A stretch of 50,600 nt of DNA from Bacteroidaceae bacterium (lineage in GTDB: Bacteria; Bacteroidota; Bacteroidia; Bacteroidales; Bacteroidaceae), in the NCBI GenBank assembly GCA_017462065.1, contig JAFTRV010000003.1, positions 1 to 50,600 on the forward strand, read 5' to 3'. The position numbers were made by a program, and so were the translations under genes. Positions 17,196-34,001 of the stretch are shown here, in pieces. Under the pieces are notes generated by a model. It ran no database searches and was not told where the DNA came from. It worked only from the letters and a program-made list of their open reading frames with translations. The stretch's first letter is position 1. Each line of letters opens with the position of its first letter.

Positions 17196-17212
17196 GGCGG
17201 AATAGTGCCGGG

Positions 17213-17243
17213 TTGTGTTTCTCTGGATATTTTTGTATCTTCG
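17213..17243 (+). promoter_or_regulatory. Probable engB promoter
   Basis: TTG at 17213-17215 and TATCTTCG at 17236-17243 (one mismatch to TAnnTTTG) are separated by 20 bases. The box lies 21 bases before the engB ATG at 17265. Confidence 0.6.
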
Positions 17244-17264
17244 TGCCATAAAATACATTGCACA

Positions 17265-17867: not shown

Positions 17868-19009
17868 TGAAAAGGGCGATATACATTCTTTCTTTGCTGT
17901 TTCTTGTTACAGCATGCGATAAAGAGAGCTATAAAATAAACGGAATTCACAAGGCTGTACCCGATGGTACGGTAATGTATCTTTCGCCATACGTTGTCTT
18001 TGATGTCGATGATATTCTTGTTCCTGTTGATTCGGCTGTAGTCAAGAACGGCCGTTTTAAGTTCAGCGGAACGCTGGAGAAACCTGGTGTATATTTCGTA
18101 TCCTCTTCACGTGTGATAGACGGTGGCTTTGTTGTCGTTGAGCCCGGGAAGGTACGTCTTGACTTGTCCGGCAGGACATCAAGGCACGGCACTGCTGGCA
18201 ATGAACAGCTCGACCGTTTCCTTAACGAAAAAGAGAAAATAATAGCAATGAGAGGCATGTGCGACCCGGCGATACTTCCGGCAATAGCGCAGACGCCAAG
18301 CGTGCGTGACAGTGTGGCGACAATGCTCTCTTTAGCGGAAATTGTTTTTGACCTCTATGTCTCAAAAGAAGTAGAAGAGAATATAGAAAATGACTTGGGC
18401 CATTTTATGCTTACTCAATCCGTAGGCATTGCCTCGCCCGAAAAATTGGCAGGTTTCTTCGAGCGTGTTCCCGAGCGGTTGAGGGATAAGATGTACGAGA
18501 GCAGGCTGGTTCAGCTGAACAGGCTGTGGGATGCTCATAGTGCGAAAGAGAGCTATATGGAAAATGCGTACAAGGCTGTGCAAGAGACCTCTGTCGGCAA
18601 AAAATATATTAATTTCGAAATGAATGATATCTCAGGCGGGAAGCGATTGTTCTCCGACATTGTCACGGATAGTGAATATACCGTGCTTTGTTTCTGGGGA
18701 GCCTGGAATGAAAATTCTCTTGCGTCTCTTTGCGAGATAGATAAAATGGCGTTGCCATATATAAAGGATGGTTTGAGCCTTGTCACGGTATCGCTCGATA
18801 CGGATGTTGATGAGTGCAAGAAGGCTGTCTTGAAAAACGATATTTCAGGTACGCATCTCTGCAATCCGAAAGGCGGCAGCGCCGAGGTGGCGTCGGCTTA
18901 CGGAATTTACGAACTGCCGCACGTGCTTGTCATAAACAGAGAGGGAACCATTCTCCTTAGAACGGCGTCGGTCAATGATGTGAAAAGCAAGCTTGCGGAA
19001 CTGTTCTAA
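17867..19009 (+). CDS. Thioredoxin-fold lipoprotein (TlpA-like), lacks CxxC
   Basis: This 380-residue predicted lipoprotein has a lipobox LVTAC with Cys17. It carries an N-terminal DUF4369-like beta domain (about 22-115), a helical middle, and a C-terminal AhpC/TSA-thioredoxin domain from about residue 245. Bacteroidetes relatives are periplasmic or membrane-anchored disulphide reductases with W-C-x-x-C. Here the corresponding stretch reads FWGAWNENSLASLC, so both active-site cysteines are missing. The cis-proline segment ELPHVLVI is retained. The protein therefore probably cannot do classic thiol chemistry, and may bind partners instead. It is linked to engB by a one-base overlap and ends at a strong terminator. 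Confidence 0.8.
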   Translation: MKRAIYILSLLFLVTACDKESYKINGIHKAVPDGTVMYLSPYVVFDVDDILVPVDSAVVKNGRFKFSGTLEKPGVYFVSSSRVIDGGFVVVEPGKVRLDLSGRTSRHGTAGNEQLDRFLNEKEKIIAMRGMCDPAILPAIAQTPSVRDSVATMLSLAEIVFDLYVSKEVEENIENDLGHFMLTQSVGIASPEKLAGFFERVPERLRDKMYESRLVQLNRLWDAHSAKESYMENAYKAVQETSVGKKYINFEMNDISGGKRLFSDIVTDSEYTVLCFWGAWNENSLASLCEIDKMALPYIKDGLSLVTVSLDTDVDECKKAVLKNDISGTHLCNPKGGSAEVASAYGIYELPHVLVINREGTILLRTASVNDVKSKLAELF

Positions 19010-19176: not shown

Positions 19177-19184
19177 TATATTTG
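19177..19184 (+). promoter_or_regulatory. SusC operon promoter -7 box
   Basis: TATATTTG is a perfect -7 box 127 bases upstream of the SusC ATG, so the operon has a leader of about 120 bases. Within it a short dyad GACAAA/TTTGTC (19254-19269) is the only local structure I see. No anti-sigma/ECF pair or hybrid two-component gene is next to the locus. Confidence 0.65.
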
Positions 19185-19311: not shown

Positions 19312-22242
19312 ATGAGAAAAAAGGTATTCTTGCTGTTTGCTTTTCTTTTTGCCATACAATACTCTTATGCGCAATCCTTTACCGTAAAGGGTAGAGTGAC
19401 TTCTGCCGACGACGGAGAGGGTATGGTCAGCTTGACGGTTATGCAAAAAGGAACGGCGAACGGTGTTGTTACTGACTTTGACGGAAATTATGTCATTCAG
19501 GTAAACAATGCAAAAGAGGCGACATTGCTGTTCACGTATGTCGGCTACGAAAGTCAGGAGCATGTCGTGACTGCAGCGACAAAGGAACTGAATGTCGTAA
19601 TGGAGTCGGAGCAGATAGCCATGGACGAGGTTGTGGTTGTCGCATATGGTGTCCGCAAGAAAGGTACTATCGCAGGCTCTGTATCGACTGTCAAGGCCGA
19701 GAAGCTTGAGAATGTTCCCGCTGTGGGCTTCGACCAGGCATTGCAAGGCTTGACACCCGGTATGACCGTGATATCCAACTCCGGTGAGCCAAGCAAGGCT
19801 GCTGTATTTCAGATTAGAGGCACAAACTCAATCAACTCGGGTACATCGCCGCTCTTCATTCTTGACGGCGTGCCTATCACAAGCTCAGACTTCAACACAA
19901 TCAGTCCTAACGACATTGAATCTATTAACGTGCTCAAGGATGCCTCTTCGACATCAATCTATGGCGCACGTGCAGCCAATGGCGTGGTTGTGATTACCAC
20001 AAAGCGAGGCACGTCTACCGAAAAGGTTGATATCACATTCCGCACACAACAGGGTTTCTCGAACCTCGCTCACGGCAATTGGAACTTGATGAATACAGCC
20101 GAGCGTATACAGTTCGAAAAGGAGATTGGCATTGACTTCGGCCAGGATTATGAACTGCTTGGCCAGACCGACGTGAACTGGCTCGACGTCGTTTTTAACG
20201 ACAGGGCGGGCCTGCAGAGCTATGACCTCTCTGTCAGCCATGCCACCGACAAACTCAATTACTTCGTTTCGGGCGGTTTCTATGACCAACAGGGTATTGC
20301 GCAAGGCTCCACGTTCCGTCGTTACAATATGCGTGCCAATGCCGACGTGCGTGTGGCGCGTTGGCTGAAACTCGGAACGAACACAATGCTTACATACGAG
20401 GAGGTGCAGCAGGCCGACGACGGCGAATATGCTCTCTACACTCCTATCTCTGCATGCCGTTTCATGCTTCCTTACTGGAATCCTTATAAAGAGGACGGAA
20501 CATTGTCGAAAACCGAGGACGGCAGCTGGACGGGCACGTCGTACAATCCGCTGGTGTGGATGGAAAACAACCCTCTGCTGAACAAGAAATACAAGGCTTT
20601 GAGCGTCTTCTATGCCGAGGCCACCCCAATAAGGAATCTTACCATACGCACGCAGCTCGGCGTCGATTATTCTCAGTCTACCGCTGATATGAAATCATAT
20701 CCGAGCTTCGTCGGCAATGACGGCGTTGGCGTAGCGGGCCGCAGCTCTTTTACGGCAGTAAATCTTACAATCACGAATACCGTGAACTACAAGTTCGACA
20801 TTGACCGTTGGCACCAGTTCAACTTCATGCTCGGACAAGAGGGCGTCGATTACCGCTCCGAGGGCTTCCAAGTTGTAACAAGCGGTCAGAACAACGATGC
20901 GCTTACGATGCTTTCGTCGGGTACAAGAGCTACATCATGGTCGAACTCGTCATCGAGCCATGCGTTCCTCTCTTTCTTCGCAAGAGGCGAATACAATTAC
21001 CGCGAGCGCTATTACGCCGACTTCTCTGTACGTACGGACGCATCGTCACGCTTCGGCAAAGAGGGGCGTTGGGCTACGTTCTGGTCTTTGGGCTTCATGT
21101 GGGATATGCGTAAAGAGAAGTTCATGCAAAAGGCGAAGTGGGTGACCAATGCGCAGATAGCGTTGAGTACGGGTACTTCGGGTAACTCATCTATCCCCGA
21201 CTATGATCATCTCGCCCTCGTCGGAAGCGGCGCAAACTACATGGGCGACGCCGGCATAGCTCCGATATCTCAAGGAAACGAGAAGCTTGGCTGGGAACAA
21301 CTCTGGTCATCGAACGTCGCATTGCACTTCGGCTTCCTCAGCCGCATAAACCTTGACATGGAACTGTACCATAAAAAGACAACCAATATGCTTATGCTTG
21401 TTCCGCAGTCGTATGTGAACAACGGCTTCGGTACACGTTGGGACAATGTGGGCGCTATGGTGAACAGCGGTTTTGAACTTTCGCTCGGAGTCGATGTGCT
21501 ACGTCTCAAGGACTTCAATTGGAACGTCAATGCGAACGCAAGCTATAACCACAACGAGATTACTGAGCTCTACAATAACCTGAACGAATATGAACTGTCT
21601 AACACTTCGACAAAGCTTCAGGTAGGCCATCCGATAGGCGAGTTCTACATCAACCGTTACGCAGGCGTAAACCCTGCCAACGGTGACGCTCTGTGGTATG
21701 ACAAGAATGGCAATATTACCAATGAGTTCAGCGAGGAGGACAAGGTGATGATAGGCAAGAACTACAATGCTCCGTGGCAAGGCGGCTTCGGTACGTCATT
21801 GTCATACAAGGGCATCTCGCTGAATGCTAACTTCAGTTGGGTGGCCGACCGCTGGATGTTCAACAACGACCGTTTCTTCGAAGAGAGCAATGGCCTTTAT
21901 TCGGCATACAACCAGTCTAAGCGTATGCTCTATGACCGTTGGAAGAAGCCGGGCGACATTGCGGACATTCCCCGTTACGGAATTACTCCGCAAATGGACT
22001 CCCGCTTCCTCGAGGACGCCTCGTTCCTTCGTCTGAAAAACATCATGATTGGCTATGACTTCCCGAGAACTCTGCTCAAGAAGAGCCGTGTATTAAGCGG
22101 CGCCCGCATATATATACAGGCGCAGAACCTCTTTACATGGACAAAGTTCAGCGGACTCGACCCGGAATCGTCAAGCAATGTGTATAAGGCTCAGTACCCT
22201 ATGTCACGTCAGTATTCATGCGGCGTTGAGATAACCTTCTAA
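19312..22242 (+). CDS. SusC/RagA-family TonB-dependent outer membrane transporter
   Basis: This 976-residue outer-membrane receptor imports oligosaccharides or oligopeptides using TonB energy, working with a SusD lid. The signal peptide ends around YSYAQ (residue 21). Residues about 22-100 form the carboxypeptidase-regulatory-like (CarboxypepD_reg) domain, starting FTVKGRVTSADDGEG. The plug follows with the SusC signature PLFILDGVPI and IESINVLKDASSTSIYGARAANG region (about 180-225). The rest is a 22-strand barrel ending in the aromatic EITF. There is no N-terminal STN domain, so regulation through an ECF sigma/anti-sigma pair is not expected. SusD follows after 13 bases. Confidence 0.95.
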   Translation: MRKKVFLLFAFLFAIQYSYAQSFTVKGRVTSADDGEGMVSLTVMQKGTANGVVTDFDGNYVIQVNNAKEATLLFTYVGYESQEHVVTAATKELNVVMESEQIAMDEVVVVAYGVRKKGTIAGSVSTVKAEKLENVPAVGFDQALQGLTPGMTVISNSGEPSKAAVFQIRGTNSINSGTSPLFILDGVPITSSDFNTISPNDIESINVLKDASSTSIYGARAANGVVVITTKRGTSTEKVDITFRTQQGFSNLAHGNWNLMNTAERIQFEKEIGIDFGQDYELLGQTDVNWLDVVFNDRAGLQSYDLSVSHATDKLNYFVSGGFYDQQGIAQGSTFRRYNMRANADVRVARWLKLGTNTMLTYEEVQQADDGEYALYTPISACRFMLPYWNPYKEDGTLSKTEDGSWTGTSYNPLVWMENNPLLNKKYKALSVFYAEATPIRNLTIRTQLGVDYSQSTADMKSYPSFVGNDGVGVAGRSSFTAVNLTITNTVNYKFDIDRWHQFNFMLGQEGVDYRSEGFQVVTSGQNNDALTMLSSGTRATSWSNSSSSHAFLSFFARGEYNYRERYYADFSVRTDASSRFGKEGRWATFWSLGFMWDMRKEKFMQKAKWVTNAQIALSTGTSGNSSIPDYDHLALVGSGANYMGDAGIAPISQGNEKLGWEQLWSSNVALHFGFLSRINLDMELYHKKTTNMLMLVPQSYVNNGFGTRWDNVGAMVNSGFELSLGVDVLRLKDFNWNVNANASYNHNEITELYNNLNEYELSNTSTKLQVGHPIGEFYINRYAGVNPANGDALWYDKNGNITNEFSEEDKVMIGKNYNAPWQGGFGTSLSYKGISLNANFSWVADRWMFNNDRFFEESNGLYSAYNQSKRMLYDRWKKPGDIADIPRYGITPQMDSRFLEDASFLRLKNIMIGYDFPRTLLKKSRVLSGARIYIQAQNLFTWTKFSGLDPESSSNVYKAQYPMSRQYSCGVEITF

Positions 22243-22255
22243 ATTTGGTAGAGAT

Positions 22256-23788
22256 ATGATGAAAACGAAATTATATATATGTCTGATGTTGCTCCTTTTG
22301 AGCGTTACATCATGCCTTGACAAGTTTCCCGAAGATGCGGTAGGCGAAAGCAACGCCATTACCAGCGTCGAGGAGGCCGACCAGGCAGTAATAGGTATCT
22401 ACTCTTCGTTCCTGAGCAGTGCCTTGTATAGCGGTTATCTCACTCTGCTGCCCGACATTCAGTGTGACCTTGTGTATGCCGTGAACGGTTACTCAAACAC
22501 TCATGGCGACATCTGGCGTTGGGATATTCTTGCGACGAATTCGCAGATAGAGGCTGTGTACGGCTCGCTTTACTCTGTAATTGGCAACTGCAACTTCCTG
22601 CTTGACAATGCGAAGAAGATTAAGCCGACACTTGTGAATGACGACGATGTAGACCGCCTTGAATCGCTGTGCGGCGAAGCCTATTTTGCCCGTGCTCTTG
22701 CCTACAGCGAACTGATAAAGCTCTTCTGTGTCGATTACAAGGGCGACGACGAAGCGAAGAACGAGCTTGGCGTTGCGTTGCGTACGGAGTATTACAAGAG
22801 TCAGCCAATAAGGCGCTCGTCGCTGTACGATTCGTACCAGTTAGTGCTTTCGGACCTTGATATGGCTGCGAAATACCTTGCTCTTGACGAGGATTATGAC
22901 CCCGCATACGACGGCTATCTTTATAACAACGCTGTATATTTCAACGAGTATACCGTTTATGCGTTGCGTGCCCGTGTAGCTCTTTATATGCGTGACTATG
23001 AGGCTGCGATAGAGTATTCGTCAAAGATAATCGACAGCAACATGTATGAGCTCTCAAGCGTAAATGCTCAGATATCTTCGGGCGTAAGCTACTACGATTA
23101 TATGTGGCAGACCGACCTTGCGACCGAGATTATATGGAAGGTGGGTTACGCGTCTACAAATTATGGAGGCGCTCTCGGACGCTTGTTCTTCAATTACGAC
23201 TACTCGTCGTTCAAGCCCGACTATGTTCCGGCAAAATGGGTCCTCGACCTTTACAACTCGTCGGACGGCCGTTACAACGCTTTCTTCTATGAGACTCTTA
23301 CGGGCTATAGTCACGGGTTGCAGTGGCCATTGCTTTATAAGTACTGGGGAAACGAGAATTTGTATGCCGAGACTCACGTGTTGAACATGTCAATGCCTAA
23401 GGTGTTCCGCCTCTCGGAGCAGTATCTCATAAGAGCCGAAGCATATTGCAATCTCGAGACTCCCGATTACAGCAAGGCAAGCAAGGATATATCGACGCTG
23501 CTCTCTTGCCGATACACCTCTTATGGCGGAGCCACGCCGCTCAATGCAAGCAATGCGATGGAGGTTATTGAACAGGAGCGTGTCAAGGAACTCTACATGG
23601 AGGGCTTCCGTCTGCAAGACCTGAAGCGTTGGGGCAAGGGTTTCGAGCGTGAGCCTCAGGCGCAGTCGTTGAGCAACGGCAGTTCGTTGAAGGTCGGTGC
23701 AGACAACCCGCTGTTTGTGTGGCCTATTCCTCAGCACGAGATTGAGTCTCCGGGAGCTGAAATAGAGCCTAATGAAAGTAACAAATAA
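22256..23788 (+). CDS. SusD/RagB-family surface lipoprotein
   Basis: This 510-residue lipoprotein is the substrate-binding lid of the SusC channel on the cell surface. The lipobox SVTSC puts the lipid-modified Cys at residue 20. The TPR-containing SusD fold is recognisable from the N-terminal SNAITSVEEADQAVIGIYSS segment, the middle EAYFARALAYSELIKLF, and the C-terminal EVIEQERVKELYMEGFRLQDL and WPIPQHEIE motifs, all diagnostic of SusD/RagB. Two ATGs in tandem (22256, 22259) could start it. It lies 13 bases after SusC. The ligand is not predictable, but the protease and LRR genes downstream suggest peptides or glycoproteins. Confidence 0.95.
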   Translation: MMKTKLYICLMLLLLSVTSCLDKFPEDAVGESNAITSVEEADQAVIGIYSSFLSSALYSGYLTLLPDIQCDLVYAVNGYSNTHGDIWRWDILATNSQIEAVYGSLYSVIGNCNFLLDNAKKIKPTLVNDDDVDRLESLCGEAYFARALAYSELIKLFCVDYKGDDEAKNELGVALRTEYYKSQPIRRSSLYDSYQLVLSDLDMAAKYLALDEDYDPAYDGYLYNNAVYFNEYTVYALRARVALYMRDYEAAIEYSSKIIDSNMYELSSVNAQISSGVSYYDYMWQTDLATEIIWKVGYASTNYGGALGRLFFNYDYSSFKPDYVPAKWVLDLYNSSDGRYNAFFYETLTGYSHGLQWPLLYKYWGNENLYAETHVLNMSMPKVFRLSEQYLIRAEAYCNLETPDYSKASKDISTLLSCRYTSYGGATPLNASNAMEVIEQERVKELYMEGFRLQDLKRWGKGFEREPQAQSLSNGSSLKVGADNPLFVWPIPQHEIESPGAEIEPNESNK

Positions 23789-23800
23789 AAAGTGGTGCAT

Positions 23801-24700
23801 ATGAAAAAGAATATATTGACATTGCTTTTGGCTTCTACAGTTGCAACCCTGTGGCTTGCAGGCTGTAAACCGGAATATACGACATATACCGGTCCTAATT
23901 ACATATTGTTCTCCGATACTTTGTACGAGATGGCTGTCGTGGACGACGTTTCGTATCACAACATACCTATAGTCGCTACACAGGCTTGCGACTACGACCG
24001 CACTGTAGGCGTTGAGGTGATTGATGCCGGCAGCAACGCTGTCGAGGGCAAGCACTATTCGATAGAGTCGAACAGCGTGACAATCAAGGCAGGAGAGCTT
24101 GCAGGCAATTTGCGTGTGAAGGGTTATCACAGCAATATATCCGTGTACGACTCTTTGGGCATAAAGCTGCAGCTTATTGTTCCCGAGGATGCCGTTTGGG
24201 ACCTGTACGGCACGACAGCCAACGTGCTTGTAAACAAGGCCTGCAAGTTCGATATCAATGCCTTTGCCGGGTATTGTCTTGTGCGTTCGACATTCATCAA
24301 TTCGTACATGACAACAACTGACAAGATACTTGCCCGTTCCGAGGTATGTCCCGACGAGGAGAATACAATCATAATAAGGGACTACTTCTTTAAAGGGTAC
24401 GACATAAAGATAAAATTTGACACATCGGATATAAAGAACCCGCTGATATACATGGAAGAGCAGCGTTTCGCCTCAACAGCCGACGCATTCGGCACATTGT
24501 ACGGCGACGGGTATATAAACGCTTATCACCCGACTGCGTATACATCATATTACAGCAGTTGCGAGAAATTCATATTCCAGTACATGACATTGTATGTTCC
24601 GGGTATGGATGCGGCATCGAACACCATAGGTACATTCGTCAATGCTGTTGAATGGATAAGCGATGACGAAGCAGAGAAATTAATGCGTGAAGGTTACTAA
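23801..24700 (+). CDS. DUF4843-family lipoprotein
   Basis: This 299-residue predicted lipoprotein has a lipobox LAGC around residue 20 followed by KPEYTTYTGP. The following sequence (NYILFSDTL, then a Calx-beta-like region VGVEVIDAGSNAVEGKHYSI) matches DUF4843, a Bacteroidetes family almost always encoded next to SusC/SusD. The function is unknown; an accessory surface ligand-binding role is usually assumed. A GTG at 23792 in the same frame is possible, but ATG 23801 gives a normal lipoprotein signal. The gene begins 12 bases after SusD. Confidence 0.82.
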   Translation: MKKNILTLLLASTVATLWLAGCKPEYTTYTGPNYILFSDTLYEMAVVDDVSYHNIPIVATQACDYDRTVGVEVIDAGSNAVEGKHYSIESNSVTIKAGELAGNLRVKGYHSNISVYDSLGIKLQLIVPEDAVWDLYGTTANVLVNKACKFDINAFAGYCLVRSTFINSYMTTTDKILARSEVCPDEENTIIIRDYFFKGYDIKIKFDTSDIKNPLIYMEEQRFASTADAFGTLYGDGYINAYHPTAYTSYYSSCEKFIFQYMTLYVPGMDAASNTIGTFVNAVEWISDDEAEKLMREGY

Positions 24701-24712
24701 AACAGAAATATT

Positions 24713-26305
24713 ATGAATAAGATAAGTAAATGGTTTATTATACCGTCCGTAATCGTTACGGGGTTGGCTGTGGTTGCCTGCGCCGACTTCAATAACGACG
24801 ATGATGTGCCGGGAGAGTTCGCATATACAGTCCCTGAATTTGACATCGAGGCTCTTGACTCATGCGACTATGTTGCGGGCTCGTTCACTATTGACGCTCC
24901 TGGCAACTGGCGTGTCGAAAGTGACAAGATGTGGCTTACGCTCTCGCTTGATTCTGCCGGTGTATATGTCAGCGAGGAGAGAGGCGGCAAAGGCAATCAT
25001 ACAGTATATGTGAAGGTGACTAACGCTGCCCGCGAATTCGTTGATGCTACAGCCGATATAAAGTTGATAACAGACACAGAAGAGTTCGTTGTGATAACTG
25101 TTCTTCGTCCCGCAAAAGAGTATAAGCTGACGCTTATGTCGGCCGAAGGCGATGTCATCGACGATATAAAAATAGGATATAGCGGCGTTGAAAGCGTGCG
25201 TGTCGAGGCTAATTATAAATGTGCCGTCGTTGAATATCCAAACTGGCTGGAAGAGCCTGTGGTAAACAAAGGCTTGTATACCTTCAGCGTTGTTCGGGAT
25301 TCGATCCCGGTAGAGTGCCGTGGCAAGATTGTAGTGAGCGACATTACTATGAATGTGAAAAGGGAATTTGAAATCGCTTATGATGGAATGAACCCTAATA
25401 ATATATCTGTGAGCGGAGAACACGACCCCTGGTGGTGGAATGTCTCTGCCGATGGAAAGGTTTTCAAGAAACTCCCTCAAGAGGGTCTTAGCAGTACGGA
25501 GGAGGTTGTCGTGGAGAACAGCCTTAGCATGAACGTTGTATGCCGTAATTTTGACTATAGCCTCTTCTTTATTGAAGAGAACGATGAGCTGTATTCTCTT
25601 AAGACCGGCGACGACGCTTGGATTAAAGGCGCTTGCAATGAGGCGGAAAAGGGCGCAATCACAATAACCGTAGAGCCTAACGCTCTTGAAAAACCACGTA
25701 CAGGATACCTCTTTGCAGTTCCCGAGGCCATGTGCGATAGTTTTATGACTGTGACGCAAGAGACCACTTCTGTAGAGGTGATGGTCGAGACGTTCGTAAA
25801 CAATGTCATTGCCCACGTTACTCAAGAGGGTATAGTTGTTGAAGGCGGTGACGGCTCGGGTGGCGAGGGTTCCGTTATTGATGAAGAGGCATGTGTCGTT
25901 ACGGACAACGATGGCAATGTCTCGTACAGTGTCGTTGAACCCGACTTGGATGTGCATACATTCCTTTTTACCGAATTCTTCTCGGCAAGCGGAGAGATAG
26001 AAGAGGCTGTGGCGAACGACAAGAATGTCGTTACATGTGATATTGTACCGGGCAAGGCATACAGCATTAATACAAAGGTGACCGGCAACAATAGAAATTT
26101 CGAGTTGCTTGACTATGAAAGCGCTCCTACCTGGAAGGAGATAAGCGGCATCGAGAATTGGAACGCCTGCATGGTTAAGAAAGATGACGGCAATTGGTAC
26201 TTGGAATTTACTGTTCCGGAATCTTTCGATAAGACAGTTGTTGTGCGTATATCGAGCAAGAACAACATCAACATTAAGATTATCATAATGAGAATAAAAA
26301 AGTAA
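24713..26305 (+). CDS. BACON-like lipoprotein of SusCD locus
   Basis: This 530-residue predicted lipoprotein has a signal ending at VVAC near residue 23, followed by an acidic linker ADFNNDDDV that resembles Bacteroidetes surface-export signals. The N-terminal third contains a BACON-like repeat (FTIDAPGNWRVESDKMWLTL, then KVTNAAREFVDATADIKL). A similar beta-rich module follows, and a glycine/serine/aspartate-rich linker (VVEGGDGSGGEGS) lies near residue 380 before a last beta domain. DUF5003-type proteins occupy this slot in related loci, but I assign that name only tentatively. No catalytic motif is visible. It likely binds ligand or scaffolds the complex at the surface. Confidence 0.65.
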   Translation: MNKISKWFIIPSVIVTGLAVVACADFNNDDDVPGEFAYTVPEFDIEALDSCDYVAGSFTIDAPGNWRVESDKMWLTLSLDSAGVYVSEERGGKGNHTVYVKVTNAAREFVDATADIKLITDTEEFVVITVLRPAKEYKLTLMSAEGDVIDDIKIGYSGVESVRVEANYKCAVVEYPNWLEEPVVNKGLYTFSVVRDSIPVECRGKIVVSDITMNVKREFEIAYDGMNPNNISVSGEHDPWWWNVSADGKVFKKLPQEGLSSTEEVVVENSLSMNVVCRNFDYSLFFIEENDELYSLKTGDDAWIKGACNEAEKGAITITVEPNALEKPRTGYLFAVPEAMCDSFMTVTQETTSVEVMVETFVNNVIAHVTQEGIVVEGGDGSGGEGSVIDEEACVVTDNDGNVSYSVVEPDLDVHTFLFTEFFSASGEIEEAVANDKNVVTCDIVPGKAYSINTKVTGNNRNFELLDYESAPTWKEISGIENWNACMVKKDDGNWYLEFTVPESFDKTVVVRISSKNNINIKIIIMRIKK

Positions 26306-26315
26306 TAGGTTTGCC

Positions 26316-28970
26316 ATGAATAGGAATTTAATATATCTGTTTGCCGCGCTCATTCTTGCCTTTACAGGTTTTACGGGCTGTACCGACAACGGGGAAATTG
26401 TTAAGGGGCAGTATGGCTATGCGCAGTTCAAGCTGTATAAGAGCGCCTCTATGGGCAAGAATTATACAGCAGCGACTCGTGTTGTCGATAAGCTGGAGTA
26501 CCTTGCCGATGCCCATAAGCTCAAGGTGGTAATGAAGTATGGCGATAATACTATAACACAGACTTTGGTGTTGAATGCATACAATGCCGAGAATGCGGAG
26601 TATGGCTTGCGTAGTGACAAACTGCGTCTTTTGGCAGGCGAGTATGAAATAAAAGGCTTCACGTTGTATGACAAGCTCGACAATGTGCTCTTGTCGCGGG
26701 ATGTCACCGGTTGTGTCATGAATGTGGTTGCCGACGGCTTGACTGTGCAGTCTCTCGGCGTCGATGCCGTAGAGCGGGGCCTCGTGTCGTTCAAGCTCGT
26801 GAAAGAGTGGGGCAATGCGACAAGGGCTGCCGAAGGCGAGGAGTATCCTTTCAGCAATATAAAGGTCGTTGATATAACCGTTCAGGATGTCTTTACAAAA
26901 GAGCCGACCACTTTTAAGAAGATTAATGTTGAATATGTCGAGGATTTTGCCGAAGGCTCGGCCGACGAAGGACTGTATCCCGGCAAGAACAAAGAGATTT
27001 CTTACGCCTTGTGCGATACGGTTCTATGGCTCGAAGGCGGAACATACCGTGTGAGCAGTTGCGTTACGTACTCAGACAAAAAGGGAAAGACAAAGCTTGC
27101 CGAAGAGCTGAATATGACCCAAAATACATTTGTCGTAAAAGACAATGTATTGACCGAGGAGGTTGAGGTGCCTATAAATCTTTCTGAGACAGCGGAGTAT
27201 ATAAAGGACTATTTGGCATTGAAGGAGATTTGGGAAGCGCTTGACGGTCCTAACTGGAGCTATGCCGGCGATGTCGAGGCCGACGGTGCCAACTGGAACT
27301 TCAATAAGGAGGTTGATTTGTGGGGCGACCAGCCCGGCGTTCAGCTGCATGCCGACGGACGTGTGGCTACAATATCATTGGAGGGCTTCGGCCCGAAGGG
27401 CGTAGTGCCCGACGCTATCGGCCAGCTTAAGGAACTTGCGGTCTTTTATCTCGGCAGCCACTCCGACCTTTTAGGCGGTCATATCTTCGGGCGAGTATCT
27501 CCTAACATGACTACTGAAGAGAAGAGCGCTTTGAGATTGGACTATGCCGACAAGGTGCTGGAAAAGGATTTCCGTTTGGGGCTCTCCAAAATATGGCAGG
27601 AGACAATCGAGCTCGATGAAAAGGAGGCTCCTTTGAAGAAAGGCATATCGCTCAAGCATATCCAGTTCGGTGATATGACGAACGGAATTACGGGTATCTC
27701 TAAGGCTATAATGCACTGTACCAAGCTTGAGCAGTTCTTTATAGCTAACTGCCCGATAGAACATGATGATTTCTTCAGGGAGATAACGGACCCGAGGTAT
27801 GTCTGCGATACGCTCAGTTGGGCAAAAATGACAAACCTGCTCGACCTTGAGATATTCAACTGTCCTAAGCTCACTGCTTTGCCGTTGGATATGCTTACCG
27901 GCCTTCCCGAACTCCAAATGCTTAACGTGGCATGCTGCAAGGGAATCACGGGAGAACAGCTGAAAAAGGACTGGGAGGCTATTATCGATGGCAATTGCGG
28001 CGACAAGATTCAGGTGCTTTACATGGGCTTCAACAACCTTAAGGAGTTCCCCGAGCATGCGAAGCTGAGCAAAATGACAAAGCTTGGCATGATAGACTGT
28101 GCCAATAACCAGCTGGAGACGCTGCATCCGTTCGGAAAGAGCATAAACCTTGCGAAGGTGTACCTTGACTACAATAAGATAAAGAGCATTCCGGTGGCTG
28201 ACGACGGCCATTTCATCGGCTTCTCGCAGCTTGAAAGCTTTACGGCCTCGCATAACGAAATGGAAGAGTTCCCCGACATCTTCAATGCCAATTCGGCCTA
28301 TGTATGTCAGTCGATAGACTTCTCTTACAACAAAATAAAGGGCTTTGAGCATGGTGACAATGCAAGGGGAGTAAACGCTTCACAGGTAAACCTCTCGGAC
28401 AACTATCTTGAGACATTCCCTGCGGTGCTTTTCAAGAAAAACTCTCCTATGAACTACCTTGTTCTTGCCGGCAATGGAATGAAAGAGATACCCGAAGGCG
28501 CATTGAGCGGCAAGAAGGCATATCTTCTCGAGGCGCTCGACCTCAGCTACAACAAGCTGAGCAAGCTGCCCGACGACTTCTATGCCCGCACGTTGCCATA
28601 CCTTATGGGCCTTGACCTCAGCTATAACTGCTTCTCGGAATTTCCGACGAAGCCATTGAGCATAAACAGCCTTTCACGTCTTTTCGTGCGTTACCAGCGT
28701 GACGAGAACGGTAATCGTATTCTCAAAGAGTGGCCTACGGGAATATACTCTTGTCCGTCGTTGTCGTTCCTCTGTCTTGGAGGCAATGACTTGAGAAAAA
28801 TCGAAGACACGATATCGCCTTACATATACTATTTTGAGATTGCCGACAATCCGAACATCTCGATAGACCTGTCGGGCGTGTGCGATTATATCCGTGCAGG
28901 AATATATATGCTTATATATGACCGTACACAGGATATACGAGGATGCGACGCTATTAAACTTGAACGATAA
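26316..28970 (+). CDS. Leucine-rich-repeat surface lipoprotein (DUF4458-like)
   Basis: This 884-residue predicted lipoprotein has a lipobox FTGC near residue 22 followed by TDNGE, an acidic start like surface-export signals. Residues about 30-290 are beta-rich and resemble the DUF4458 N-terminal region. From about residue 500 to 850 there are leucine-rich repeats: LLDLEIFNCPKLTALPLDML, LGMIDCANNQLETL, KVYLDYNKIKSIP, ALDLSYNKLSKLP and LGLDLSYNCFSEFP are individual units. LRR arrays bind proteins or glycans, and in this setting probably present a ligand to SusCD or to the protease. No enzyme motif is seen. It starts 10 bases after the preceding gene. Confidence 0.75.
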   Translation: MNRNLIYLFAALILAFTGFTGCTDNGEIVKGQYGYAQFKLYKSASMGKNYTAATRVVDKLEYLADAHKLKVVMKYGDNTITQTLVLNAYNAENAEYGLRSDKLRLLAGEYEIKGFTLYDKLDNVLLSRDVTGCVMNVVADGLTVQSLGVDAVERGLVSFKLVKEWGNATRAAEGEEYPFSNIKVVDITVQDVFTKEPTTFKKINVEYVEDFAEGSADEGLYPGKNKEISYALCDTVLWLEGGTYRVSSCVTYSDKKGKTKLAEELNMTQNTFVVKDNVLTEEVEVPINLSETAEYIKDYLALKEIWEALDGPNWSYAGDVEADGANWNFNKEVDLWGDQPGVQLHADGRVATISLEGFGPKGVVPDAIGQLKELAVFYLGSHSDLLGGHIFGRVSPNMTTEEKSALRLDYADKVLEKDFRLGLSKIWQETIELDEKEAPLKKGISLKHIQFGDMTNGITGISKAIMHCTKLEQFFIANCPIEHDDFFREITDPRYVCDTLSWAKMTNLLDLEIFNCPKLTALPLDMLTGLPELQMLNVACCKGITGEQLKKDWEAIIDGNCGDKIQVLYMGFNNLKEFPEHAKLSKMTKLGMIDCANNQLETLHPFGKSINLAKVYLDYNKIKSIPVADDGHFIGFSQLESFTASHNEMEEFPDIFNANSAYVCQSIDFSYNKIKGFEHGDNARGVNASQVNLSDNYLETFPAVLFKKNSPMNYLVLAGNGMKEIPEGALSGKKAYLLEALDLSYNKLSKLPDDFYARTLPYLMGLDLSYNCFSEFPTKPLSINSLSRLFVRYQRDENGNRILKEWPTGIYSCPSLSFLCLGGNDLRKIEDTISPYIYYFEIADNPNISIDLSGVCDYIRAGIYMLIYDRTQDIRGCDAIKLER

Positions 28971-28987
28971 TCATAACAGAAACAGAT

Positions 28988-30697
28988 ATGGCAAAATATA
29001 TTCTAAAGATTACACTGTCGCTTGCAGTAGCTCTTTTGGCTGCCGCATGCACTGACGATGAAGGCAAGGTAGTCGGCTTTTCTGTAAACAATGACGAGTC
29101 GGTCATAACCTTTGACGCCGCAGGCGGCAAGAAGGTTGTCTTGGTAGAGACCGACGAGAGCTGGGTGGCTACAACAATGGAGCCGTGGATTACAATATCG
29201 CCGGCGAACGGCTTAGGCTCTGTCGCTTGCGAGATAATTGTCGATTCTTCTCTTACCAATGAGGTCCGCCCCGGAGCGATACGCTTTACTCCGGGTATAA
29301 GCCCTGCCAAGACATTGAAGGTCGAGCAGTTCGGCTTTGACAAGATGATATTGCCAAAGGACAGCGTACTGACAATCGAGTCTTCGGAAAAGCTTGACAA
29401 ACGCTACTTCGAGGCGGAGATTTCTTCGAACGTGCAGTTCAAGGTAGAGTGCGACTTCATGGGGAATGACGAGTGGCTCACTCCTGCGGCACCCGAATTC
29501 GAGCTTGACCGAGGCGCTCGTCCACGCACGATAAAGCTGCGTTTTGACTGGAAAATGAACACTGACACGCTTGAACGTGTGGCCGAAATAAAGTTCGTCC
29601 CGAAGAGTGCCGGCGACGTTCTCAAGAAAGAGGCAATATTGACCGTAAGGCAAAAGGCTGCCGTAAAAATAGAGGATAACCGTGCCGGTGACTCTATCGC
29701 TCTTGTTGTCATCAACGAGCGTTTGAACTGCTGGAGCGACGCTTGGGATACAAGCGAGAACATGCAGTACTGGAGCGGAGTGAAGTTGTGGGAGAAGACC
29801 GATACGGCATTGCCGTGCCCCGAGGCTGTAGGCCGTGTCCGTTCAGTGGAGTATTTCCTTATAGATACTAAGGAGAGCTTGCCTTCGGAATTCAAGTATT
29901 TGAAGTATCTTGAGTCCTTGTCCGTGTCAAGCAATATCAACACTATGTTGCTCGATATTGAACTTGGCACAGAAATCTGCGACTTGGAGTATCTGAAGAA
30001 TATCCGTCTGTTCTCGTACGGCCTTGTATCATTGCCGGCAGAGTTCGTGAAGCTCGGCAACTCGCTCGAGACGCTCGATTTGAGTGCTAATAACTTCACG
30101 GCGATACCCGAAATACTTACTCAGGAGAACTTCCCCAAATTGAAGTCGCTTAACTTCATAGGCTCAAGACGCTACACGACAAGCGATTTGCGTAAGGCCG
30201 ACAGCTATAAGGACAGAGGCGGTGTCGGACTGCACTTCAATACCGATACGGACAATACTCTGCGTAACCTCTTGTTGTGGGAGAATCTCGAGGAGCTTTC
30301 TCTGTCGAACTGTTACATCGAGGGCACAATCCCCGATTTCAAGGTCGGCGAGGATGGAGTAGTCACATACGAGCAGAAAGATGTCGATGCGTGGGGCGGC
30401 GACACGATACAGTATGTAGCCGACAACAAGATTCCTAAGATTTTGCCTAACTGCACAATGTTGAGGCTTAACCTGAATTTCTTTACAGGCAAGCTGCCCG
30501 ACTGGCTGCGTTATCACCCGCACTTGCTTGAATGGATGCCCGACCTCTTGATTTTCCATCAGCAGGAAAAGGGCTACAATTCCGAAGGCAAGGTAGTCGG
30601 CTTTGACAATGCCCCGTCTACGTTTGACTACTATTATGAAGCATTCCCGGCTTTAAGAGAGAAATTTGAGTTTAAGGATGAGATAACAAATGAATAA
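28988..30697 (+). CDS. BACON-domain plus LRR surface lipoprotein
   Basis: This 569-residue predicted lipoprotein has a lipobox LAAAC near residue 21 followed by TDDEGK, a good surface-export-like acidic stretch. A BACON domain follows (about 32-105), seen as VITFDAAGGKKVVLVETDE, the WITISP motif and RPGAIRFTPG, with a second beta domain to about 225. The C-terminal half has LRR units such as ETLDLSANNFTAIP and NLEELSLSNCYIEGTIP. It is a shorter partner to the preceding LRR protein. BACON domains are thought to bind mucin or carbohydrate. Its end overlaps the start of the protease gene by eight bases. Confidence 0.75.
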   Translation: MAKYILKITLSLAVALLAAACTDDEGKVVGFSVNNDESVITFDAAGGKKVVLVETDESWVATTMEPWITISPANGLGSVACEIIVDSSLTNEVRPGAIRFTPGISPAKTLKVEQFGFDKMILPKDSVLTIESSEKLDKRYFEAEISSNVQFKVECDFMGNDEWLTPAAPEFELDRGARPRTIKLRFDWKMNTDTLERVAEIKFVPKSAGDVLKKEAILTVRQKAAVKIEDNRAGDSIALVVINERLNCWSDAWDTSENMQYWSGVKLWEKTDTALPCPEAVGRVRSVEYFLIDTKESLPSEFKYLKYLESLSVSSNINTMLLDIELGTEICDLEYLKNIRLFSYGLVSLPAEFVKLGNSLETLDLSANNFTAIPEILTQENFPKLKSLNFIGSRRYTTSDLRKADSYKDRGGVGLHFNTDTDNTLRNLLLWENLEELSLSNCYIEGTIPDFKVGEDGVVTYEQKDVDAWGGDTIQYVADNKIPKILPNCTMLRLNLNFFTGKLPDWLRYHPHLLEWMPDLLIFHQQEKGYNSEGKVVGFDNAPSTFDYYYEAFPALREKFEFKDEITNE

Positions 30698-32726
30698 TAT
30701 GATAAAGAGACTTGTATATACGCTGTTTATAGCATTTGCCGCTCTGTCGTGTACCGACAATGTCGAAAACGGCAATACGTTGCAGGGCAGCCTGTCCGCA
30801 CCGTTCAATGATGATGCCGTTGAGGGAGAACTGCTCATTAAGTTCGCCCCTGAGATGACCGATATACTCGACACTCATTATTCTACCCGCTCTGCAGGCG
30901 GTATTGCGACCCGCTCCGGCATTCCGTCCACCGACGAGGTGCTGAGCATTCTCGGCGCATACAGCATCGAAAGGGTGTTCCCTATCGACCCCGAGGCCGA
31001 GGAGCGTACCCGTGAGGCCGGGCTTCATCTTTGGTACAAGGTGAGCTTTGACAAGGAGATTGATGTCAATGAGGCTAAGATGCAGTTGTCCAAGCTTGGA
31101 GAAATATCAAAGATGCAGTGCAACCGACGCATATACAGTGCGGGCAACGGCAAGAAGCCTGTGCTTGTAAGTGCCGAAGGAGTCAGAAATGCTGCTGCCG
31201 ATAATGCGGCATTGCCTTTCAACGACCCAGATTTGCACCTCCAGTGGGGTTACATAAACAAGGGCGGCTATAGCTTCGAGCAGGAGTGGGCCAAGAGCAT
31301 AAAGAACTGCGACGTGAACTGCGAGGAAGCATGGGCTCTCTGCACCGGCGACCCCTCAATCATTGTCGGTGTCATGGACGAGGGTGTAATGTGGGAGCAT
31401 CCCGACCTTGAGCCTAACATGTGGGTGAATGAGGATGAGGAGAACGGCTCCTATGAGGACAACGACAACAATGGTTTCAAAGGCGACCGCTATGGCTATA
31501 ATTTCGCATCGGACAGGGGCTACATATCATCTACCGGCTCAAATGACAGCGGTCACGGAACGCACGTGGCAGGAACAATCGCCGCCGTGAACAATAACGG
31601 TCTCGGAGTGTGCGGCATTGCCGGCGGAGACGCATCGAAAGGCGAGCCCGGTGTCAAGATAATGTCTTTGCAGATATTCGATGACAGCAGGGCCTCTACG
31701 GTCGCTCTCGAGGCCAAAGCGTTCAAATATGCGGCCGACAACGGCGCTGTCATCGTGCAGTGCAGCTGGGGCTATAACTCGGCATACTCAAATATAATTC
31801 AAGGTTTCACCCCGGGTCCTGCGAGCGAGAAGGAGTGGGAGACGCTCTATCCGCTTGAAAAGGAGGCTATCGACTATTTCATAGAGAACGCAGGTTCTCC
31901 TAACGGGGTCATCGACGGCGGCATTGTCGTCTTTGCCGCCGGTAACGAGTCCGCGGGCAAGCCCGCATATCCGGGAGCCTACTCCAAGTGCGTGTCGGTC
32001 AGCGCTATCGCTGCCGACTATACACCGGCTACTTATACCGACTACGGCGAAGAGGTCGATTTTACGGCTCCGGGCGGTGACGGCGACTACTATGGCGTTC
32101 CGGGAAGCTCTTACGAGAACGGGGGAATGATATATTCTACCCTTTCTTTCGAGGGAAAGGCGGGCTATGGCTTCTACGAGGGTACATCAATGTCTTGTCC
32201 TCACGTGTCTGGCGTGGTAGCGCTCGGCCTCTCTTATGCGGCGCAGCTCCGCCGTCATTTTACGGCCGAGGAGTTCATTGAGCTGATGTCACAAGAATCG
32301 ACCGACATCGAGGAGTATTTCGAGGGCGAGAAATTCTCTCACTATAACCACTCCTCTCCCGGTTCGTTCGCTACAAAGACCCCTCTGTCGCAGTACAAGG
32401 GAAAGATGGGCAAGCTCGTGAACGCAGGCAAGCTGCTGAAGGCTATTGAGACTGCCGGACGTGACATGAAGGTGCCTAATTTCTATGTTGCTCCTGAAAA
32501 GTCGGTAACGCTTGACCTTGCACGCTTCTTTGTCAATGGCGAAAACTTGGAATACAGCTATGAGATTTTGGACAATACAGTGGCGACAGCCGAAATGGAA
32601 GGTACGGTACTGACTGTGAACGGCAAGAGAGAGGGCTTTACGTCCTTGACAATAAAAGTCAATGGCGCGGAACATGTCGTTGAGGTTACTGTACGCAACG
32701 GCGCTAATAATAATGGCTGGCTGTAA
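30690..32726 (+). CDS. S8 (subtilisin-family) serine protease lipoprotein
   Basis: This 678-residue predicted surface lipoprotein protease has a lipobox ALSC near residue 20 followed by TDNVEN. An inhibitor-like propeptide region runs to about 180. The S8 catalytic domain (about 215-560) has Asp230 in VGVMDEGV, His289 in GHGTHVAGT and Ser500 in GTSMSCPHVSG, plus the oxyanion asparagine in AAGNESAG. All three triad residues are intact, so it should be active. A short beta domain with a KVNGAEHVVEVTV segment closes it. Overlap with the upstream gene and a one-base overlap with the next show co-transcription with SusCD. ATG 30699 is an alternative start. Its presence is the strongest hint that the locus handles proteins. 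Confidence 0.9.
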   Translation: MNNMIKRLVYTLFIAFAALSCTDNVENGNTLQGSLSAPFNDDAVEGELLIKFAPEMTDILDTHYSTRSAGGIATRSGIPSTDEVLSILGAYSIERVFPIDPEAEERTREAGLHLWYKVSFDKEIDVNEAKMQLSKLGEISKMQCNRRIYSAGNGKKPVLVSAEGVRNAAADNAALPFNDPDLHLQWGYINKGGYSFEQEWAKSIKNCDVNCEEAWALCTGDPSIIVGVMDEGVMWEHPDLEPNMWVNEDEENGSYEDNDNNGFKGDRYGYNFASDRGYISSTGSNDSGHGTHVAGTIAAVNNNGLGVCGIAGGDASKGEPGVKIMSLQIFDDSRASTVALEAKAFKYAADNGAVIVQCSWGYNSAYSNIIQGFTPGPASEKEWETLYPLEKEAIDYFIENAGSPNGVIDGGIVVFAAGNESAGKPAYPGAYSKCVSVSAIAADYTPATYTDYGEEVDFTAPGGDGDYYGVPGSSYENGGMIYSTLSFEGKAGYGFYEGTSMSCPHVSGVVALGLSYAAQLRRHFTAEEFIELMSQESTDIEEYFEGEKFSHYNHSSPGSFATKTPLSQYKGKMGKLVNAGKLLKAIETAGRDMKVPNFYVAPEKSVTLDLARFFVNGENLEYSYEILDNTVATAEMEGTVLTVNGKREGFTSLTIKVNGAEHVVEVTVRNGANNNGWL

Positions 32727-33523
32727 TGGCTGTTATGAAGAGGCGTATAGCTTTTATATCGTTGATTGCTCTCCTGTCCGCTCTGCCTGTCGCAGGGCAG
32801 GTCAGCAAACGGCTTTCACGTGAGGCTATCGACTCCTTGAAGAACAAAAGGCCGCTCGATGGCGGCAGCGGCTATCTGCTCTTTGATGAATATGCCCATG
32901 ACATGGGTACGATATACGAAAGCGATACGGTGCAGGCCGTTAGTTTCGCTTTTGAGAATGTGTCGAATGAGGTTGTTGAAATAACCGACATTGTTACAAA
33001 TTGCGGGTGCGCCTCCTCTTTTTGCAATAAAAAGAGACTCAGTCCCGGCGAGAAAGGCACGGTGACGGTAAAGTTCAATCCTCATAGCCGTTCGGGAACG
33101 GTAGACACGAACGCATTTGTATACACGTCGTTGTCAAGCGTGCATCCCGTAGCGAAGCTTACGCTCCTGGGAAATGTAATCGACAGGAACGAGTGGAGGC
33201 ACTTGCCGTGCATTATGGGAAGCCTGCGCCTTAAGAGCAAAGAGGCGTGCTTTGAACAGGTGAGAGGCGGCACGGCTCCGCAAGTGCGTATAGCTTGCGC
33301 CAATGTAGGCACGTCGCCTCTGCGTCTCTTTTCAAGAATGCTGCCCCCGTATGCGGCGTTCGTGACCGAGCCTGCGGAGCTCTCTCCCGGCGAGGAGGGC
33401 GACTTGGTAATAACGGTGAAAGGCAGTCTGTTGCCCGAGGACGGAGCGGACAGCTTTGAGATATTGGTGGAGGGCGTCGAAGGGCGAATCTCGGACCGCA
33501 TAATTAAAGTAAGACTAAAATAA
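32726..33523 (+). CDS. DUF1573 exported protein
   Basis: This 265-residue protein has a signal peptide ending near PVAGQ (residue 25) and no lipobox cysteine. Residues about 50-150 match DUF1573, an Ig-like, ASPM/SPD-2-related beta domain: YAHDMGTI, then AVSFAFENVSNEVVEI, then a TNCGCASSFC cysteine motif, then KGTVTVKFNP. A second similar beta domain fills the C-terminus. DUF1573 proteins are very common in Bacteroidetes and usually of unknown role. Its ATG overlaps the protease stop by one base, so it is translated with it. Confidence 0.82.
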   Translation: MAVMKRRIAFISLIALLSALPVAGQVSKRLSREAIDSLKNKRPLDGGSGYLLFDEYAHDMGTIYESDTVQAVSFAFENVSNEVVEITDIVTNCGCASSFCNKKRLSPGEKGTVTVKFNPHSRSGTVDTNAFVYTSLSSVHPVAKLTLLGNVIDRNEWRHLPCIMGSLRLKSKEACFEQVRGGTAPQVRIACANVGTSPLRLFSRMLPPYAAFVTEPAELSPGEEGDLVITVKGSLLPEDGADSFEILVEGVEGRISDRIIKVRLK

Positions 33524-33536
33524 AAAGAGTGAGCAT

Positions 33537-34001
33537 ATGAAAACTTTTTTAAAGACTTTTGCAATACTATTCGCAATATCGTTTCTTGGCAGTTGCAGCA
33601 ACGACGGCATAGATGATATTCTGCCAGAGAACTTAGAGGTCACTCCTAACAATATCGCAGGCGTCTGGAAGTTGATGGAGGTCAATGGAGCTGTTCTTCC
33701 GGCCGATGCGTACTGCTATGTGGAATACATACGCAAAGACAAGAAATTCGTAATGTATCAGAAGTTTGACAGTATGTATCCTCGTCGCATTACAGGCAGG
33801 TATTCTATCGAGAACGATGCGAAGAGGGGCTCTGTGCTTTCGGGCATTTATGATTTCGGCATGGGAGAGTGGAACAACAAATATATTGTCTCCGAGCTTC
33901 TTGAGAGTGACATGGTGCTTGTCTCCGAATCTCAGGACGAGGTCTGCAAATACATGCGTTGCAACGAGGTGCCTTCCGACATATTGGAGCAGGCAAAGTG
34001 A
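33537..34001 (+). CDS. Lipocalin-like lipoprotein
   Basis: This 154-residue predicted lipoprotein has a lipobox LGSC near residue 20 followed by SNDGIDD. The mature part has the small beta-barrel pattern of Bacteroidetes lipocalin-like proteins: an early IAGVWKLMEVNG segment, then YVEYIRKDKKFVMYQ and ITGRYSIEND strands. No ligand can be named. It is the last gene of the SusCD run, 13 bases after the DUF1573 gene. Confidence 0.65.
   Translation: MKTFLKTFAILFAISFLGSCSNDGIDDILPENLEVTPNNIAGVWKLMEVNGAVLPADAYCYVEYIRKDKKFVMYQKFDSMYPRRITGRYSIENDAKRGSVLSGIYDFGMGEWNNKYIVSELLESDMVLVSESQDEVCKYMRCNEVPSDILEQAK

What the first reader, a model, noticed from the sequence alone, without database searches (positions are those of the whole stretch)
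19312..34001. SusCD locus built around a subtilisin protease and LRR/BACON lipoproteins, with no glycoside hydrolase
Nine consecutive genes, with gaps of at most 17 bases or overlaps, encode SusC, SusD, DUF4843, a BACON-like protein, two LRR lipoproteins, an intact S8 protease, DUF1573 and a lipocalin-like protein. Most are lipoproteins, several with acidic residues right after the lipid cysteine, as in surface-export signals. The absence of carbohydrate enzymes and presence of a protease suggest a capture-cleave-import machine for host or dietary proteins, comparable in logic to RagAB peptide uptake but with LRR recognition parts. This is my best candidate for an undescribed system in the window.
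Basis: inference. Interest (0 to 1): 0.72.

Follow-up and report, generated by a model that had tools for sequence, protein, structure and literature searches.

The report
Conserved bacterial surface protein-feeding gene cassette
Nine neighbouring genes, kept in the same order in many gut Bacteroidales, most likely build a cell-surface machine that catches proteins, cuts them with a tethered protease and pulls the pieces into the cell, so the textbook sugar-importer design seems to have a protein-eating counterpart.

Summary
Window 19312-34001 carries nine co-directional genes, each gap 17 bases or less: SusC, SusD, DUF4984/DUF4843, a BACON-like lipoprotein, two LRR lipoproteins, an intact S8 subtilisin, DUF1573 and a lipocalin-like lipoprotein. 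It is not peculiar to this window: the same order recurs across Bacteroidaceae and in at least one other family. By product names, B. thetaiotaomicron carries at least five of the genes as BT0207-BT0213.

Peptide import gains a new line of evidence. The SusC is closer to the peptide importer RagA (589 bits) than to any of 55 other SusCs examined from one Bacteroides-like genome (best 421), and that best paralogue prefers another solved SusC over RagA (650 against 311). The only nearer full-length SusCs outside the cassette family in my set also sit beside S8_N subtilisins. The flanks sampled show no conserved glycan enzymes.

Against a strict capture-cleave-import machine: three homologous loci keep SusCD and LRR genes but lack S8, and one S8 stands without the cassette. 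New: gene 4 is hypervariable (median 24% identity against 66% for SusC).

Verdict: a real, widespread, functionally undescribed variant of the SusCD/RagAB kind. Mechanism inferred; complex, ligand and growth were not tested.

The parts
19177..19184 (+). TATATTTG, possible -7 element of a Bacteroidota promoter upstream of susC (uncertain)
   Evidence: read, found by script; consensus TAnnTTTG recalled; short and degenerate, no conserved upstream element seen in relatives
19312..22242 (+). SusC/RagA-type TonB-dependent outer-membrane barrel, RagA-like clade
   Evidence: TIGR04056 E 1.8e-239; best solved relative RagA 6sli, 589 bits; ranking against 55 other SusCs; control
22256..23788 (+). SusD/RagB-type lid lipoprotein
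   Evidence: SusD_RagB E 2.6e-16; best PDB 3kez, then RagB
23792..24700 (+). DUF4984 (DUF4843-like N part) lipoprotein, function unknown, likely accessory on SusCD
   Evidence: PF16372 E 9.5e-60; well conserved in 12 relatives; no meaningful PDB relative (best E 0.048)
24713..26305 (+). BACON-like surface lipoprotein, hypervariable; proposed substrate-recognition part
   Evidence: weak BACON; median pairwise identity 24% in 33 cassettes; highest dN of nine genes in 6 of 8 pairs
26316..28970 (+). LRR1: two DUF4458 domains + LRR_10 + leucine-rich repeats, lipoprotein
   Evidence: solved homologues 4ecn (E 2e-258) and 4eco
28988..30697 (+). LRR2: BACON + leucine-rich repeats, lipoprotein
   Evidence: acidic signal CTDDE
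30690..32726 (+). S8 subtilisin lipoprotein with S8_N pro-domain; D230, H289, N419, S500
   Evidence: homologous to solved subtilisins
32726..33523 (+). DUF1573 Ig-like protein, no lipobox, probably periplasmic
   Evidence: PF07610 E 1.2e-20
33537..34001 (+). lipocalin-like small lipoprotein
   Evidence: Lipocalin_4 E 0.0033, below cut-off; acidic signal; conserved last gene of the cassette

Best explanation
A protein-utilisation cassette. The lipoproteins of genes 4-6 (BACON-like, LRR1, LRR2) sit on the cell surface and bind protein substrate. The membrane-tethered S8 subtilisin cuts it. The RagA-like SusC barrel with its SusD lid imports the peptides in a TonB-dependent way, with DUF4984 probably seated on the transporter. 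The DUF1573 protein acts in the periplasm and the lipocalin-like lipoprotein is an accessory of unknown role. POT and OPT transporters elsewhere in the genome could finish the uptake. Shown here: gene order and its conservation, the RagA affinity of SusC, kept catalytic residues, lipoprotein and acidic export-type signals, hypervariability of gene 4. Inferred: surface location, that the parts form one complex, that peptides are the cargo, and that gene 4 decides the target.
For: Nine-gene order kept in 26 of 40 fetched S8_N neighbourhoods by a strict rule; of the 29 of these whose S8 has 680-708 codons, 26 are full, L076 is cut by a contig end, L101 has all nine genes but gene 4 scores 55.8 bits, below my 60-bit rule, and L097 has no cassette upstream. 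The 40 were chosen, not random. Of 13 named loci, 8 show all nine, 2 have an unmatched ORF in slot 4, 3 are cut by contig ends; three of these records recur among the 40. In another family G647 is complete and G068 is too, with an unmatched ORF in slot 4. SusC: RagA 589 bits against 391 for the next solved SusC, 8aa4; at most 421 bits for 55 other SusCs of G235. Control: the best of those, L137, prefers 8aa4 (650) to RagA (311). The full-length S8_N-linked SusCs of L081 and L108 are nearer to the window (705, 700) and L108's best solved match is RagA, 636 bits. RagAB is the peptide transporter of P. gingivalis (PMC11817032, PMC12578637, PMC7782687, passages). Catalytic positions kept 33 of 33. 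Export-type signals. Genes co-diverge (LRR1-S8 r 0.91, SusC-S8 r 0.82; 0 of 999 permutations), as any jointly inherited genes would. No conserved glycan enzyme in the flanks sampled. Own genome (84% complete): seven SusC over cut-off plus one split, two S8, one POT, one OPT.
Against: Three loci (G405, G493, G444) keep genes 1-6 and have a third LRR gene and an unknown lipoprotein instead of S8 and what follows; G405 has no S8_N match in its genome, while G493 and G444 have S8_N genes elsewhere. L097 has the S8 without the cassette upstream. L106, another S8_N locus with SusCD, has a SusC only weakly RagA-like (RagA 223.5, 8aa4 211 bits). SusD's best solved match is a 'putative sugar binding protein' (depositors' name). 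BACON and lipocalin-like folds do not speak for protein binding. A B. theta BT_0212 mutant still cleaved the one protein tested (PMC6282197 passages). No structure could be predicted. The cargo of the 55 comparison SusCs is not known one by one.
Confidence: 0.68

Rival explanations
1. Peptide import is the function, but S8 is an optional helper: the core is RagA-like SusCD plus LRR/BACON receptors that capture proteins or peptides cut by other proteases, and the S8-DUF1573-lipocalin tail was added or lost in some families.
For: S8-less homologous loci in two families; G405 has no S8_N match; LRR genes present in all three.
Against: Within the cassette S8 co-diverges with LRR1 and SusC, and the full order is kept in Bacteroidaceae and in G068/G647.
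Confidence: 0.17
2. Glycan or glycoprotein PUL: SusCD imports an oligosaccharide and S8 merely removes the protein part, with glycan enzymes encoded elsewhere, in the manner of BT4240-50 with its M60-like peptidase.
For: A protease inside a SusCD locus is known there, together with GHs (PMC11992087 passages); SusD best PDB match called sugar binding; one relative (L087) has a GH109-like gene and a GDSL-type esterase next door.
Against: No glycan enzyme among the nine window genes; the same nine slots are filled in relatives by homologues of these (not scanned one by one); one such flank in 11 loci sampled; SusC in the RagA clade.
Confidence: 0.1
3. Protective surface protease: S8 and the LRR proteins destroy host or competitor proteins (antimicrobials, antibodies) or mature other surface proteins, and SusCD imports something unrelated.
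For: Hypervariable gene 4 fits immune or phage pressure as well as ligand choice.
Against: Tight operon of protease and transporter; two different S8_N locus types carry RagA-like SusC.
Confidence: 0.05

Closest known systems
RagAB of Porphyromonas gingivalis (peptide-importing SusCD)
   Same: SusC best solved match is RagA (589 bits); SusD also matches RagB
   Different: RagAB is described as importing gingipain-cut peptides (PMC11817032 passages); that gingipains are not part of the rag operon is recalled; here an S8 protease, two LRR proteins, a BACON-like protein and DUF4984 lie in the same operon
Levan and dextran utilisomes of B. thetaiotaomicron (SusCD + surface binder + surface enzyme)
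   Same: logic: transporter, surface binder and surface enzyme from one locus (PMC7618045 abstract, outline and passages)
   Different: protease in place of GH, LRR/BACON in place of a glycan binder; a complex is not shown here
BT2261-2264 (SusCD with bound oligopeptides)
   Same: SusCD with oligopeptide ligands (PMC7782687 passages); extra lipoproteins recalled
   Different: window SusC only 107 bits from BT2264: a different SusC clade; no protease in that locus known to me (recalled)
BT4240-50 mucin PUL with M60-like peptidase
   Same: surface protease encoded with SusCD (PMC11992087 passages)
   Different: carries GHs and CBM32; M60-like, not S8; mucin-inducible
B. thetaiotaomicron BT0207-BT0213 and solved LRR protein 4ecn
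   Same: apparently the same locus, judged by product names: BT0207-08 SusD and DUF4984, BT0211-13 BACON, S8 and DUF1573; 4ecn is homologous to LRR1 (that it is BT_0210 is recalled)
   Different: sequences not compared here; no function assigned in the passages seen; the genes are listed only as lower in iron-poor medium, P 0.084-0.57

Membership tests
SusCD/RagAB transporter | SusC/RagA TonB-dependent barrel followed by SusD/RagB lipoprotein | tested here: met
SusCD/RagAB transporter | SusC nearer to RagA than to other SusC paralogues | tested here: met
   589 against at most 421 bits for 55 of the 56 G235 SusCs listed; one search scored 56 of 118 candidates, so G235 may hold more; control L137 prefers 8aa4
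SusCD/RagAB transporter | binds and imports oligopeptides | not testable with these tools
   needs structure or growth assay
Polysaccharide utilisation locus | SusCD pair | tested here: met
Polysaccharide utilisation locus | carbohydrate-active enzymes in the locus | tested here: not met
   none among the nine genes; in relatives' flanks one locus of 11 sampled (L087: GH109-like, GDSL-type esterase), not conserved
Polysaccharide utilisation locus | linked regulator | tested here: inconclusive
   no regulator recognised next to the operon in the window (upstream gene scanned; downstream gene read as Rho, not scanned); one relative (L207) has an unscanned ORF upstream that reads like an anti-sigma factor
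Utilisome | surface binder and surface enzyme lipoproteins encoded with SusCD | tested here: met
   by sequence only; with a protease as the enzyme; binding itself not tested
Utilisome | stable complex on SusCD | not testable with these tools
   structure prediction switched off
S8 subtilase | Asp-His-Ser triad and oxyanion Asn | tested here: met
   33 of 33 aligned

The most novel reading that the evidence does not exclude
A protein utilisome with exchangeable receptors: SusCD and S8 form a conserved chassis, while the surface block BACON-like-LRR1-LRR2, above all gene 4, is swapped or diversified between strains and between two to three cassettes of one genome, so that each cassette targets a different protein.
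Probability: 0.35. Interest if true: 0.75.

Novelty: new variant of a known kind. Interest (0 to 1): 0.56.

Why it matters
SusCD systems are mostly known as glycan importers. A 2025 paper on RagAB discusses whether RagAB works with surface protein-binding molecules and peptidases, and whether it forms complexes like the glycan utilisomes (PMC11817032, section 3.4, read in full). This cassette is a natural operon with parts of exactly that kind, common in gut Bacteroidales and, by product names, present in the model strain B. thetaiotaomicron, so the question can be tested directly. It would also link gut protein breakdown to a dedicated surface machine.

Tried and rejected
Regulatory DNA: no conserved element upstream of susC in seven aligned upstream regions (window plus six relatives of its genus); terminator-like sites are at chance level (13 against 12.9) and promoter-like sites above shuffles (29 against 17.5) but scattered on both strands. 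Iron or haem scavenging: the B. theta genes are lower, not higher, in iron-poor medium and the P values are not significant (passages). Replacement of S8 by another protease in the three S8-less loci: the ~350-400 aa proteins there match no Pfam family except one weak RHS repeat; not a recognised protease. L106 as a BT2264-type SusC: rejected, 71 bits only. Positive selection on gene 4: pairwise dN/dS is below 1 wherever it could be computed; several silent rates were saturated. One search searched DUF4842 by mistake (DUF4843 was meant); its family result is not used. PMC13271334 and PMC9765649: the passages shown held nothing on such loci.

The 40 S8_N neighbourhoods were not a random draw: they were chosen from the places listed (about one hundred, not counted) by score and reading-frame length, ten of them because their frames had other lengths. 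Rows dropped before counts: L084, near-identical to L083, before the identity medians (34 to 33 cassettes); SusC-like ORFs under about 800 aa (among them those of L103, L104 and L111) before the SusC ranking. The G235 comparison uses 55 of its 56 listed SusC matches, the cassette's own copy left out; one search scored 56 of 118 candidates.
Full report
What is there. Nine + strand ORFs run from 19312 to 34001 with spacings of 13, 3, 12, 10, 17, -8, -1 and 13 bases. Family scans name them SusC/RagA, SusD/RagB, DUF4984 (with a weak DUF4843 match), weak BACON, DUF4458-LRR_10-LRR, BACON-LRR, S8_N-S8 subtilisin, DUF1573 and a weak lipocalin-like domain. The gene before (17864-19009) is a DUF4369/thioredoxin-like lipoprotein, 302 bases away; the gene after reads as Rho (not scanned). 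The window lies in a 2.08 Mb, 84% complete draft genome. The LRR1 matches of 61-72% identity are MAGs, mostly Bacteroidaceae from ruminant hindgut.

Intactness and location. The subtilisin has D230, H289, N419 and S500; these positions are kept in 33 of 33 cassettes. Seven window proteins have a lipobox; SusC and DUF1573 do not. Over 34 cassettes the eight residues after the lipid cysteine hold 3.9-4.0 acidic residues on average in the BACON-like (34 of 34 with lipobox), LRR1 (34), LRR2 (33) and lipocalin-like (29) proteins, against 1.1-1.4 expected from their own composition; SusD 2.75 (32), S8 2.73 (33), DUF4984 1.88 (32). In the window itself the signals are milder in LRR1 (CTDNGE) and S8 (CTDNVE). 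That such acidic runs mark surface export in Bacteroidota is recalled knowledge.

Conservation. In 13 named loci, 8 hold all nine genes in order, 2 (Bacteroides acidifaciens L040, B. caecigallinarum L042) have an ORF in slot 4 that the window's protein did not match, and 3 are cut by contig ends. Leyella stercorea and Prevotella sp. P5-92 are among the full ones. In 40 S8_N neighbourhoods chosen, 26 are complete by a strict rule. Twenty-nine of the 40 have an S8 of 680-708 codons; the three of these that are not complete are L076 (contig end), L101 (all nine present, slot 4 at 55.8 bits against a 60-bit rule) and L097 (S8 with no cassette upstream, contig end just downstream). The other eleven S8_N places have other lengths or a split S8 and lie in other settings. 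Over 392 genomes of the order, 10 carry DUF4458: the own one, G056 (complete, L105) and eight that I read in stretches of about 20 kb. Of these eight, G647 is complete, G068 is complete with an unmatched 816-codon ORF in slot 4, G666 lacks DUF1573, three lack S8 and have a third LRR gene and an unknown lipoprotein (G405, G493, G444), and two show no cassette (G391, G680). In the window's own genus 21 of at least 41 genomes have LRR1; several without it are over 90% complete, so absence is often real.

Peptide or glycan. With the window's SusC as query, phmmer gives RagA 589 bits and the next solved SusC, 8aa4, 391. The same program gives at most 421 bits to 55 other SusCs of G235, a Bacteroides-like genome (55 of 56 listed; 56 of 118 candidates were scored), and at most 253 to the six other full SusCs of the own genome. 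Control: the best of the 55 (L137) prefers 8aa4 (650) and gives RagA 311, so affinity to RagA is not a property of SusCs at large. Only two full-length SusCs in my set outside the cassette family are nearer to the window, those of L081 and L108 (705, 700), and both lie beside S8_N subtilisins. L108's SusC hits RagA best, 636 bits. Against this, L106 also joins SusCD with an S8_N subtilisin, but its SusC is only weakly RagA-like (RagA 223.5, 8aa4 211 bits). RagAB is described as a peptide transporter in the passages of PMC11817032, PMC12578637 and PMC7782687. Twenty flanking proteins from 11 loci were scanned, of 33 listed over 180 aa in 12 loci; one locus (L087) has a GH109-like gene and a GDSL-type esterase, the rest are unrelated housekeeping or mobile genes or have no match. 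The own genome holds one POT and one OPT oligopeptide transporter and two S8 proteins.

How the parts evolve. Median pairwise identity in 33 cassettes: SusC 66, SusD 62, S8 55, DUF4984 50, LRR1 48, lipocalin-like 47, LRR2 43, DUF1573 39, BACON-like 24%. Divergences of the genes correlate, LRR1-S8 r 0.91, SusC-S8 0.82, SusC-BACON 0.61, as expected of jointly inherited genes. Two cassettes of one genome (G343) share 84-91% in SusC, SusD, S8, DUF1573 and the lipocalin-like protein, 65-70% in DUF4984, LRR1 and LRR2, and 28% in the BACON-like protein. Silent divergence also jumps there (saturated for BACON-like and LRR1, 2.3 for LRR2, 0.56-0.69 for SusC, SusD and S8), which suggests exchange of the surface block. 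In L098/L100 gene 4 has the highest silent divergence of the nine (1.26 against 0.26-0.99); in L079/L085 it is high too (0.93), but so is SusC (0.90), so there the mosaic is wider than gene 4. Gene 4 has the highest dN of nine genes in 6 of 8 pairs; in the other two DUF1573 or DUF4984 is higher. No dN/dS above 1 was seen. Ligand choice, immune pressure and phage pressure are all possible causes.

Known or not. PMC10434189 (passages) lists BT0207-08 as SusD and DUF4984 and BT0211-13 as BACON, S8 and DUF1573, in a table of genes lower in iron-poor medium, with P 0.084-0.57. PMC6282197 (passages) reports a BT_0212 mutant, which still cleaved EspB. 4ecn is a solved homologue of LRR1 (BT_0210 recalled). 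No paper on the function of this locus came up in the listings, which cover open-licence PMC only. PMC11817032 section 3.4, read in full, calls it plausible that RagAB interacts with surface protein-binding molecules and peptidases and leaves open whether it forms utilisomes; glycan utilisomes are described in PMC7618045 (abstract, outline and passages).

Verdict. A real and widespread cassette, best read as a peptide-importing RagAB-like system with its own tethered protease and receptor lipoproteins. The parts list is shown; the working is inferred. It is a new variant of a known kind.

Noticed in passing
L106:16173-17165, L108:16221-17156 (also the ~310-330 codon ORFs after S8 in L103, L104, L109-L113): S8_N subtilisins of other lengths are followed by a ~310-330 codon ORF; the two scanned are PorV-like (PF19572), and L108's S8 has a Por_Secre_tail match just below cut-off, suggesting T9SS export with a dedicated PorV.
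   Followed up: partly
L208:12820-15746, L209:3721-6638, L210:4488-7324: S8-less variant of the cassette in two other families: third LRR gene plus an unknown ~350-400 aa lipoprotein in place of the S8 tail.
   Followed up: partly
window 1647-2123 and 2199-3686 (+): A gene that reads like methionyl-tRNA synthetase (not scanned) is interrupted into two ORFs; possibly an assembly error of the draft genome.
   Followed up: no
L081:3677-6550 (-): The S8_N gene beside a RagA-like SusCD is split into two ORFs in G268.
   Followed up: no
L207 (G666), 16594-17763 (-): A cassette whose SusC ORF is 1087 codons and is preceded by an ORF that reads like an anti-sigma (FecR-type) factor; family not scanned.
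   Followed up: no
G000:C35:44119-47111: One SusC of the own genome is matched in two pieces, one with an in-frame stop.
   Followed up: no
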